The notes below the pieces were generated by a model that saw only the letters and a list, made by a program, of their open reading frames with translations, ran no database searches and was not told the DNA's origin. A program made the translations under genes and the position numbers. 64,000 nt of DNA from Stygiolobus caldivivus (GTDB taxonomy: Archaea; Thermoproteota; Thermoprotei_A; Sulfolobales; Sulfolobaceae), in NCBI RefSeq assembly GCF_019704315.1, contig NZ_AP024597.1, positions 2,702,501 through 2,766,500 of the forward strand. Reading direction: 5' to 3'. Shown piece by piece: positions 18,822 through 57,481 of the stretch. Every line of letters begins with the position of its first letter. Position 1 is the stretch's first letter.

Positions 18822-19361
18822 AAGACCGTTACTTTCCTCACCTTTATACATACCTTCTATAGAAACGGGTATTTCCATATAGGGCATTGTAGGGTGTTTT
18901 ATAAGGTAAAACCTAAACCCCCACTTACTCCTCTTCACCTTAACGATTACGTGCATAGAGTGGTGGTTAAAGGCACCGCCCTGAGGTAGTCCCCTTACTT
19001 CTCTGGTGAATACCCATACTTCCCTCCTTAACGAAGACGTGATCTCGGTATACTTCTTACCGTGGAAATAAGGGTCTATTACGATTAGCTCCTTGTCAAA
19101 GCTCTCTATTGTGGGTTTGACGTCTTCCGCCTTAAAAGCCCTCCTGATAAACACCTCACTTGTGTTCCCGAGTAGGCGTTGGAACTTTTTCACTAAAAAG
19201 GGGTCAAACTTACCAAACTCTTGGACTAGCACTACGTTAACCGGGGCTGAAGCGGCTACAGCCCTATGGGCCAAGAACAAGACATCGTCCCAGCCCCCGT
19301 AAAACTCTACTCTTTCATTACTGCTCAGGATACTGTCAATATTTTCAATTTCAAGCCTCAT
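18801..19361 (-). CDS. RecA/RadA-superfamily paralog lacking Walker A (probably ATPase-inactive)
   Basis: A 186-residue protein that follows the RadA core pattern without its nucleotide loop: where RadA has the P-loop this protein reads [20 protein letters not shown] (about residues 18-37). A Walker-B-like hydrophobic strand ending in Asp follows ([10 protein letters not shown]). The C-terminal segment [20 protein letters not shown] then [18 protein letters not shown] mirrors the RadA strand-turn ending in a proline-rich PE-type motif. Sulfolobales carry several RadA-like proteins. It is divergent from, and shares a control region with, the PolB2 operon. A role in damage tolerance or recombination control is inferred. 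Assignment is by pattern, so moderately sure. Confidence 0.6.
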
Positions 19362-19400
19362 ATATTTAAACTATTTTTAAATAATGAGACGGTGTACGCT

Positions 19401-19444
19401 GAAAGTATTATAATATTTTCGGTCTACTCTCAGTATTTGAAATT
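19401..19444. promoter_or_regulatory. Cluster of three ANTTTC hexamers between the RadA-like gene and the polB2 operon
   Basis: The 126-bp divergent promoter region contains ANTTTC three times: ACTTTC on the minus strand (19401-19406), ATTTTC on the plus strand (19415-19420) and AATTTC on the minus strand (19439-19444). In Sulfolobus islandicus this hexamer is reported as the element needed for Orc1-2-dependent induction of DNA-damage-response genes, dpo2 among them. Such short motifs also arise by chance in AT-rich DNA, so the support is their density plus the gene context. Confidence 0.5.
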
Positions 19445-19487
19445 ATTGATAAAGGCTAATCTAGTAACACCTCTATAAAGAGTATGT

Positions 19488-19724
19488 ATGGGTAGGACAC
19501 TTCCTTCCCTTACTACGGCGATAAGAGAAGAGACGGAGAGGTTAAGGAGAGTCGCAGAGAGGGTAAAAGACGAAAAGCTAAGGAGGAAATTGTTAAGTGC
19601 ATTAGAACACACCAGAGAACTGCAGGACGCATTTTACGACGAGGTAGCAGACCCCGAAGAAATAGTCCTCCTGACTATAATCCTCTACTTATGTGGTAAT
19701 GATGACGACAGGGTATCTGATTGA
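19488..19724 (+). CDS. Small helical protein, first gene of the polB2 operon
   Basis: A 78-residue, almost entirely helical protein. It has a strongly charged helix (AIREETERLRRVAERVKDEKLRRKL, about residues 11-35), a second helix and a short hydrophobic stretch (IVLLTIILYLCG), ending DDDRVSD. It overlaps the start of polB2 by about 30 bp, so the two are co-transcribed and probably translationally coupled. A helical-protein gene beside polB2 is a recurrent arrangement in this order as I recall it. It may be a polymerase partner; this is inferred from position only. Confidence 0.6.
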   Translation: MGRTLPSLTTAIREETERLRRVAERVKDEKLRRKLLSALEHTRELQDAFYDEVADPEEIVLLTIILYLCGNDDDRVSD

Positions 19725-56476: not shown

Positions 56477-57061
56477 ATGCATATGCAAGCTATACACCTC
56501 CTTACCAAACGGGCTTTAAAAGGTGATTTAGACGCATTGAGAAAAACCATACAATTTCTAGAGAGTTATGACGTACCAGTAGCAAAGTTCGCCATTTACT
56601 CCCTTATTTATCAATATGCGATGAACAATATCATAAACCTTAAAGAAGAATGTGAAAAATGCGGAGGTAAGTGTTGCAAGTCAGGTTTACCAGTACCCGT
56701 CTATGATTTTGACTACGAAGAAATGACCAAACATATTAGGTTAAAGTTGGAAAAGAAAAACTCCATTTATTTGATACCTAGACCGTGTAAGTACCAAAAA
56801 GGTTGGACGTGTAGTATTAACTCTTTTAAGCCCTATGCTTGCCTGAGTTACCCCTTTGCTACCGAGGATGAACAAATAGAAGTAATAAAGAACTATAACG
56901 GGAAAGGAGTCCCAGACTTTAACGTTCCTGATTTTTGTACAGCTGGGAAGAAAGTTAAAGCTTTAATGGATTCCTTAATCAAAAACTTGAGGAAAGAAAA
57001 AGGGAGAGAACCAAAACCAGAGGAAGTGCTCATTGCATTACTAAATGATAAGAGACGTTAA
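56477..57061 (+). CDS. YkgJ-family (UPF0153) cysteine-cluster protein
   Basis: A 194-residue protein with the zinc/iron-chelating YkgJ pattern: EECEKCGGKCCKSG (about residues 57-70), then PRPCKYQKGWTCSINSFKPYACLSYPF (about 98-124), and a last Cys in PDFCTAGKK. Members are thought to bind a metal cluster; the cellular role is not settled. The start is ATG 56477 or ATG 56483. Single gene followed by a hairpin-rich region. Confidence 0.85.
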   Translation: MHMQAIHLLTKRALKGDLDALRKTIQFLESYDVPVAKFAIYSLIYQYAMNNIINLKEECEKCGGKCCKSGLPVPVYDFDYEEMTKHIRLKLEKKNSIYLIPRPCKYQKGWTCSINSFKPYACLSYPFATEDEQIEVIKNYNGKGVPDFNVPDFCTAGKKVKALMDSLIKNLRKEKGREPKPEEVLIALLNDKRR

Positions 57062-57270
57062 TTTTTATCTCTCTATCTACTTTCTATTTGTATCTCAAGC
57101 GGAAGCGATAAAGTCCTTTTTTGAATACGGTAGCCTTTTTCCATGTTGTCAGGAAAAGTACAGTATAGGTATTAAGTCGCTAATGATTTTATTATATAGT
57201 ATCATCCTAATTTCCTTACTGCCCTAAAGGACGAGAGGCGTTCAGTAATAAACCTTTCTGTTGAACTTCA

Positions 57271-57481
57271 AACCAGCTAAGGTTGTCACGTGGATCCTTT
57301 CAATCCACGTGGGGACTAAGTGGGTCCTTTAATCACTTAGGTTCATGAGGCTTATTATACCAAACACTCCATACAACTTGTATAGGAGGTCAGTAAAACA
57401 CTGCACTACCATCTTTCTTGCAATAAGTGTTTTACGTAACCTACTCCCCAGCTGGTTAGGAAAGGAGATATTATGTCTCCT
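57271..57481. ncRNA. Candidate multi-branched structured RNA
   Basis: An outer stem AACCAGCT (57271-57278) / AGCTGGTT (57450-57457) encloses several perfect stems: CACGTGGAT/ATCCACGTG (57287-57295, 57303-57311), CTAAGTG/CACTTAG (57316-57322, 57334-57340), the palindrome ATACAA/TTGTAT (57371-57383) and GTAAAACACT/AGTGTTTTAC (57393-57402, 57426-57435). AGGAGA/TCTCCT (57463-57481) follows. The first two hairpins share a CCTTTA/CCTTTC loop. The nesting favours an RNA, but palindromes of a mobile-element end or replication origin would look alike. Strand undecided. 57062-57270 and 57482-57684 show nothing further. Confidence 0.5.

What the first reader, a model, noticed from the sequence alone, without database searches (positions are those of the whole stretch)
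57271..57481. Multi-branched structured RNA candidate next to the YkgJ gene
An 8-bp closing stem encloses two consecutive perfect hairpins with near-identical CCTTT loops, a palindrome and a 10-bp perfect stem, followed by another hairpin. Such nesting in about 210 bp of AT-rich DNA is hard to get by chance and fits no tRNA, 5S, SRP or RNase P pattern I know.
Basis: partly seen in the sequence, partly recalled or inferred. Interest (0 to 1): 0.66.

Follow-up and report, generated by a model that had tools for sequence, protein, structure and literature searches.

The report
Shrunken remnant of an IS110 transposon

Summary
The stems are really there, and the region folds better than shuffles (z -4.4 on +, -6.4 on -). 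But it is not a free-standing multibranched RNA gene. Window 57237-57386, read on the minus strand, is a ~150-bp internally deleted IS110-family element: a left-end piece (CCTATACAAG) fused to the last transposase codons, then the 3' non-coding region and the family's conserved right end (TTTATTACTGAACGCC). Some 70 copies, many next to IS110 transposase genes, occur in related genomes. The window's genome has no intact IS110 transposase and one other relic. Across 64 copies only the central hairpin is conserved with compensatory changes; the second hairpin is not, and the closing stem, 10-bp stem and last hairpin involve DNA outside the element. In intact copies this region most likely makes the element's bridge/seek RNA, though I found no convincing guide-target match. 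The central hairpin also resembles the genome's CRISPR repeats (ATTGAAAG core), which fits published binding of the CRISPR-repeat-binding protein Cbp1 to the 3' flank of the IS110 element ISC1229. An ordinary relic with an interesting detail.

The parts
57237..57386 (-). internally deleted IS110-family element (left-end piece + transposase 3' end + 3' non-coding region + right end)
   Evidence: 75% identity to a 144-nt right end of an IS110 copy, E 8e-22; alignment of 64 copies; the joined left-end/tnp pattern is found with 2 mismatches only here among 31 genomes
57377..57386 (-). left-end (LE) piece CCTATACAAG, cf. CCTATATAGG (CCTATACAGG in L006) of intact copies
   Evidence: LE of intact copies; pattern match; 8/10 identity, inferred
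57333..57376 (-). remnant of the last transposase codons, WSVWYNKPHEPK-stop (relatives WSVWYNNKPYEPK-stop); one AAT codon lost
   Evidence: relatives' protein is PF02371 + PF01548, NF033542
57237..57332 (-). 3' non-coding region (NCR), presumed bridge/seek RNA region, with a 7-nt gap against relatives
   Evidence: alignments A1, A2
57287..57311 (-). central hairpin P2, CACGTGGAT TGAAAGG ATCCACGTG: the only helix of the finding that is conserved with compensatory changes
   Evidence: 6 pairs with changes on both sides; 30 such cells in the tested structure vs 9.2 in shuffles (0/500 reach it); slid controls at most 13 cells
57297..57320 (-). CRISPR-repeat-like 24-mer CTTAGTCCCCACGTGGATTGAAAG (16/24 identical to the genome's repeat GTTAATCCTTAATGGAATTGAAAG); candidate Cbp1 site
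   Evidence: 21 of 1000 shuffles as good; PMC10883916
57237..57254 (-). right end (RE), GGTTTATTACTGAACGCC, conserved element terminus; CC is the presumed core dinucleotide
   Evidence: no similarity to any fetched element locus
56477..57061 (+). neighbouring CxxCxxCC (YkgJ-like) gene, unrelated to the element

Best explanation
Window 57237-57386 (minus strand) is a decayed, MITE-like derivative of an archaeal IS110-family insertion sequence. A left-end piece was fused to the 3' end of the transposase gene, keeping most of the 3' non-coding region and the right end. Shown: homology to the right ends of many IS110 copies in related genomes, the transposase family, the conserved central hairpin, the lack of any intact transposase in this genome, and other left-end/right-end fusion copies elsewhere. 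Inferred: in intact copies the 3' region is transcribed with or after the transposase and folds into the RNA that the DEDD recombinase uses to bring target and element ends together (bridge/seek RNA). The central hairpin doubles as a DNA site for the CRISPR-repeat-binding protein Cbp1, which may restrain the element. The window copy has no transposase to act in trans in its own genome and should be inert today. The remaining hairpins arise from the deletion junction and from flanking DNA.
For: Right-end homologues in 13 of 60 genomes (own included), E down to 5e-30, up to nine scored per genome; with a better query 14 of 31 family genomes, up to 27 matches in one. Next to them lie ORFs with IS110 transposase motifs: PF02371 E 3.7e-25 and PF01548, NF033542 190 bits. 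Intact elements are ~1.2 kb between CCTATATAGG and TTTATTACTGAACGCC. The window aligns with 63 other distinct right ends over its whole length. Central-hairpin covariation. Own genome: no PF02371 match, one weak NF033542 match at E 3e-4, one other right-end relic at 1160016, itself ..ATATAGG fused to TTGAAAGG. Similar fusions at eight places in relatives, some of them orthologous (L123-L126, L129-L131, L137). Beyond 57386 nothing matches the element. Cbp1 binding in the 3' flank of IS110-family ISC1229: PMC10883916. Downstream NCRs that make seekRNA in part of the family: PMC11187229.
Against: The left-end piece is short (8/10 identity), so it could be chance, with the element simply truncated at about 57377. 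No empty site was found for this copy; the intergenic DNA is not conserved even in the other genome of the genus. No transcript data. The bridge-RNA step is not shown: complementarity between each copy's NCR and its own insertion flanks barely exceeds permuted pairs (7 to 11 of 150 permutations as good), and copies with near-identical NCRs sit in different sites. Some copies lack the TTGAAAG loop (TCTAGAGG types), so a Cbp1 site is not universal.
Confidence: 0.88

Rival explanations
1. A free-standing, multibranched regulatory or catalytic RNA encoded at 57271-57481.
For: Strong folding excess on both strands.
Against: The boundaries cut across an IS110 remnant and unrelated flanking DNA; only one helix is conserved; no Rfam match; all relatives of the conserved part are transposon ends.
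Confidence: 0.03
2. The conserved hairpin is selected as DNA only (a Cbp1 or transposase binding site, or a cruciform-forming end), and no functional RNA is made from the 3' region.
For: ATTGAAAG core shared with the genome's CRISPR repeats; Cbp1 ChIP peaks in the 3' flank of ISC1229 (PMC10883916); three copies (L112, L113, L121) carry the loop inverted, which keeps the DNA motif; minimal copies lose the 5' arm of the hairpin yet keep TTGAAAGG or only the 3' arm; guide-target test inconclusive.
Against: Compensatory changes keep the helix in full copies; bridge/seek RNA is predicted or shown for most studied IS110/IS1111 elements (PMC11208160, PMC11187229).
Confidence: 0.3
3. The window copy is a simple 5'-truncated right end (solo end), not a left-end/right-end fusion.
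For: Many truncated right ends exist in relatives with varied 5' limits; the left-end match is only 10 bp.
Against: CCTATACAAG sits exactly where transposase similarity stops, and left-end/right-end fusions of a related kind are common.
Confidence: 0.25

Closest known systems
IS110-family insertion sequences with a downstream (3') non-coding region; ISC1229 of Saccharolobus (Sulfolobus) solfataricus
   Same: DEDD/Transposase_20 recombinase, ~1.2 kb, 3' non-coding region, CRISPR-repeat-like motif in the 3' flank, many decayed copies
Bridge RNA / seekRNA of IS110 and IS1111 elements (IS621, ISEc11)
   Same: structured non-coding region at one end of a DEDD-recombinase element, in the right end as in IS1111 and some IS110 elements
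   Different: no matching target- or donor-binding loops demonstrated; no subterminal inverted repeats seen; transcript not tested
Sulfolobus MITEs (SM3A, SMN1)
   Same: short non-autonomous derivatives of insertion sequences, dependent on a transposase in trans
   Different: those depend on ISC1058 and ISC1733 (PMC3718332) and MITEs are defined by terminal inverted repeats; this one derives from IS110 and shows none

Membership tests
IS110 family insertion sequence (as remnant) | DEDD transposase with Transposase_20 C-terminal domain in full-length relatives | tested here: met
IS110 family insertion sequence (as remnant) | window copy aligns to the terminus and transposase 3' end of those elements | tested here: met
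IS110 family insertion sequence (as remnant) | intact transposase in this copy | tested here: not met
   only about 13 C-terminal codons remain; hence 'remnant'
IS1111 subgroup | 7-17 bp subterminal inverted repeats | tested here: not met
   ends carry GGTTTTATTA / GGTTTATTAC in direct orientation (read by eye)
bridge RNA / seekRNA | structured non-coding RNA region at an element end | tested here: met
   (central hairpin; outer stem consistent but without two-sided changes)
bridge RNA / seekRNA | loops complementary to target and donor DNA | tested here: inconclusive
bridge RNA / seekRNA | RNA expressed and bound by the recombinase | not testable with these tools
   needs RNA-seq or co-purification
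Cbp1 binding site | CRISPR-repeat-like motif with a 6-bp core near the repeat 3' end | tested here: met
   ATTGAAAG shared with the own genome's repeats; 16/24 match, 21/1000 shuffles as good
Cbp1 binding site | Cbp1 occupancy | not testable with these tools
   shown for ISC1229 copies in S. solfataricus (PMC10883916), not for this copy
MITE-like non-autonomous element | both element ends retained, no transposase, repeated in genomes | tested here: inconclusive
   LE piece 8/10; the window's exact fusion is unique, a related fusion type occurs in several genomes

The most novel reading that the evidence does not exclude
The 3' RNA of these archaeal IS110 elements carries a CRISPR-repeat mimic in its central hairpin, so that the transposon RNA is bound or processed by the host CRISPR machinery (Cbp1 on DNA, possibly Cas6 on RNA, which would leave an AUUGAAAG-tagged fragment), linking RNA-guided transposition with CRISPR in the same cell.
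Probability: 0.06. Interest if true: 0.75.

Novelty: new member of a known kind. Interest (0 to 1): 0.33.

Why it matters
It explains an apparently novel structured RNA as a transposon relic and identifies a family of archaeal IS110 elements with a conserved, hairpin-bearing 3' region. These are good candidates for thermophilic bridge/seek RNAs. The CRISPR-repeat-like motif inside that hairpin offers a concrete sequence basis for the published, unexplained Cbp1 binding to IS110 elements. Repeated left-end/right-end fusions suggest which minimal sequences the recombinase needs.

Tried and rejected
tRNA, tmRNA and Rfam families: none. Multibranch structure as a conserved unit: rejected. Second hairpin as conserved: rejected. 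A second right end at 57384-57401 (repeat D3): the similarity (78% over 18 nt) does not extend, taken as chance. Guide-target complementarity: inconclusive; variable parts of the NCR do not track insertion-site groups. Orthologous locus in other species by the YkgJ protein: no hit; tnp in viral contigs: none; in plasmids only distant IS110 proteins. A dense folding scan of the whole window timed out and was replaced by a sparser one.

Full report
OBSERVATION. The 211-nt stretch folds far better than dinucleotide shuffles on the + strand (z -4.44) and still better on the - strand (z -6.42). In a sparse scan of the window only 1 of 107 stretches scored below z -4. Rfam has no match and there is no tRNA. 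The neighbour at 56477-57061 is a CxxCxxCC (YkgJ-like) protein.

WHAT IT IS. A DNA search of 60 related genomes found strong matches to window 57237-57377, many per genome. Next to several of them, on the strand corresponding to the window's minus strand, are ORFs of up to ~370 aa with the marks of IS110-family transposases (GIDVSK..., RGKKTDFYDAEKLENMVD, LTIPGIGRLAAGIIIG...WSVWYNNKPYEPK-stop). One of them matches PF02371 (E 3.7e-25), PF01548 (7.5e-7) and NF033542 'IS110 family RNA-guided transposase' (190 bits against a cut-off of 140). Intact elements run from a left end CCTATATAGGTTTTATTAG... to a right end ...TTTATTACTGAACGCC, about 1.2 kb.

The window copy, read on the minus strand, holds the last transposase codons (WSVWYNKPHEPK-stop, one codon lost), a shortened 3' non-coding region and the exact right end. 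Directly 5' of the transposase codons stands CCTATACAAG, like the element's left end. The fused pattern CCTATATAGG+TTGTATGGAGTGTTTGG occurs with two mismatches only here among 31 family genomes. DNA beyond it, 57387 onwards, has no similarity to any fetched element locus. I therefore read 57237-57386 as an internally deleted copy. Comparable short copies, in which the left end is fused directly to the loop or 3' arm of the hairpin (TATATAGG|TTGAAAGGACCCACGTGG...), occur in several relatives, and the second relic of the window's own genome (1160016) is of this type. The own genome has no PF02371 match and only one weak NF033542 match, so nothing is left to mobilise the copy.

THE HELICES. On 64 distinct right ends (alignment A2) I tested a structure made of an outer stem (transposase 3' codons with the element terminus), its extension and the central hairpin. 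Six pairs, all in the central hairpin, have two-sided changes; over the whole structure 30 cells have such changes against 9.2 in shuffles (0 of 500), and slid controls reach at most 13. RNAalifold finds the same hairpin on its own. The outer stems are paired in 97% and 91% of cells but change on one side only, so they are consistent, not proven. Part of their conservation is explained by the protein code and the terminus. The palindrome near 57367-57389 is the left-end/transposase junction. The 10-bp stem and the last hairpin are flanking DNA. So the impressive nesting is mostly an accident of one real hairpin, one junction and the neighbouring DNA.

HOW IT LIKELY WORKS. In the IS110/IS1111 families a non-coding region at one end makes a bridge RNA (seekRNA) that pairs with target and donor DNA. 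It is upstream in most IS110 and downstream in most IS1111 and some IS110 elements (PMC11208160, PMC11187229). These archaeal elements have their structured region downstream and no subterminal inverted repeats that I could see, so they would belong to the minority of IS110 types with a 3' region. This step is inferred. Insertion flanks are diverse (weak consensus around a CC core), near-identical right ends sit in different sites, and a complementarity test between right ends and their own flanks was barely above permutation (7 to 11 of 150).

A SECOND LAYER. The loop and 5' arm of the central hairpin resemble the CRISPR repeats of these genomes. The window genome's own repeats end in GGAATTGAAAG (GTTAATCCTTAATGGAATTGAAAG and GTTAATCCCTCATGGAATTGAAAG; relatives), and the window copy has CTTAGTCCCCACGTGGATTGAAAG, 16 of 24 identical (21 of 1000 shuffles as good). 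Most copies carry TTGAAAG; three carry it inverted; some copies of genus g4 carry TCTAGAGG/TCTAGATGG instead. Independently, Cbp1, the CRISPR-repeat-binding protein of Sulfolobales, was found to occupy a CRISPR-repeat-like motif in the 3' flank of the IS110-family element ISC1229 (PMC10883916). The simplest joint reading is that this hairpin is that site. I could not compare with the ISC1229 sequence itself.

LIMITS. The left-end piece is short. No expression data. No empty site for the window copy.

VERDICT. Ordinary in kind (a decayed IS110 copy), with two points worth keeping: a conserved candidate guide-RNA region in archaeal IS110 elements, and its overlap with a CRISPR-repeat-like Cbp1 motif.

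Noticed in passing
G000:C1:1023025-1028934 and 1031768 onwards (own genome, outside the window): Large CRISPR arrays with repeats GTTAATCCTTAATGGAATTGAAAG and GTTAATCCCTCATGGAATTGAAAG; about 200 forward and 185 reverse adjacent pairs genome-wide.
   Followed up: partly
window 19301-19511: Another stretch with a very strong folding excess (z about -7 on the + strand, 20 shuffles); AT-rich with long imperfect inverted repeats around 19341-19450, looks intergenic.
   Followed up: no
L123, L124, L125, L126, L129, L130, L131, L137, L140: Short (~75-85 bp) IS110 derivatives in which the left end CTATATAGG is joined to the loop or 3' arm of the central hairpin; the junctions tend to fall at GG, and L123-L125 share flanking sequence.
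   Followed up: partly
L112, L113, L121: The loop of the central hairpin is inverted (CCTTTCAA instead of TTGAAAGG) while the stem is kept.
   Followed up: no
L045, L057 (G023) and L046, L059 (G026): A diverged subfamily shares only the terminal ~28 nt of the right end; in G026 it has an unrelated but equally long central hairpin (GAGCACGAGG/CCTCGTGCTC) at the same position.
   Followed up: partly
insertion flanks listed: Copies recur in the same repeated target sequences (e.g. GACGACACTATGTCC|ACACTC in G013; GGGAAACACC|ACTACCCTCCCATCC in G028), suggesting preferred insertion into other repeats.
   Followed up: partly
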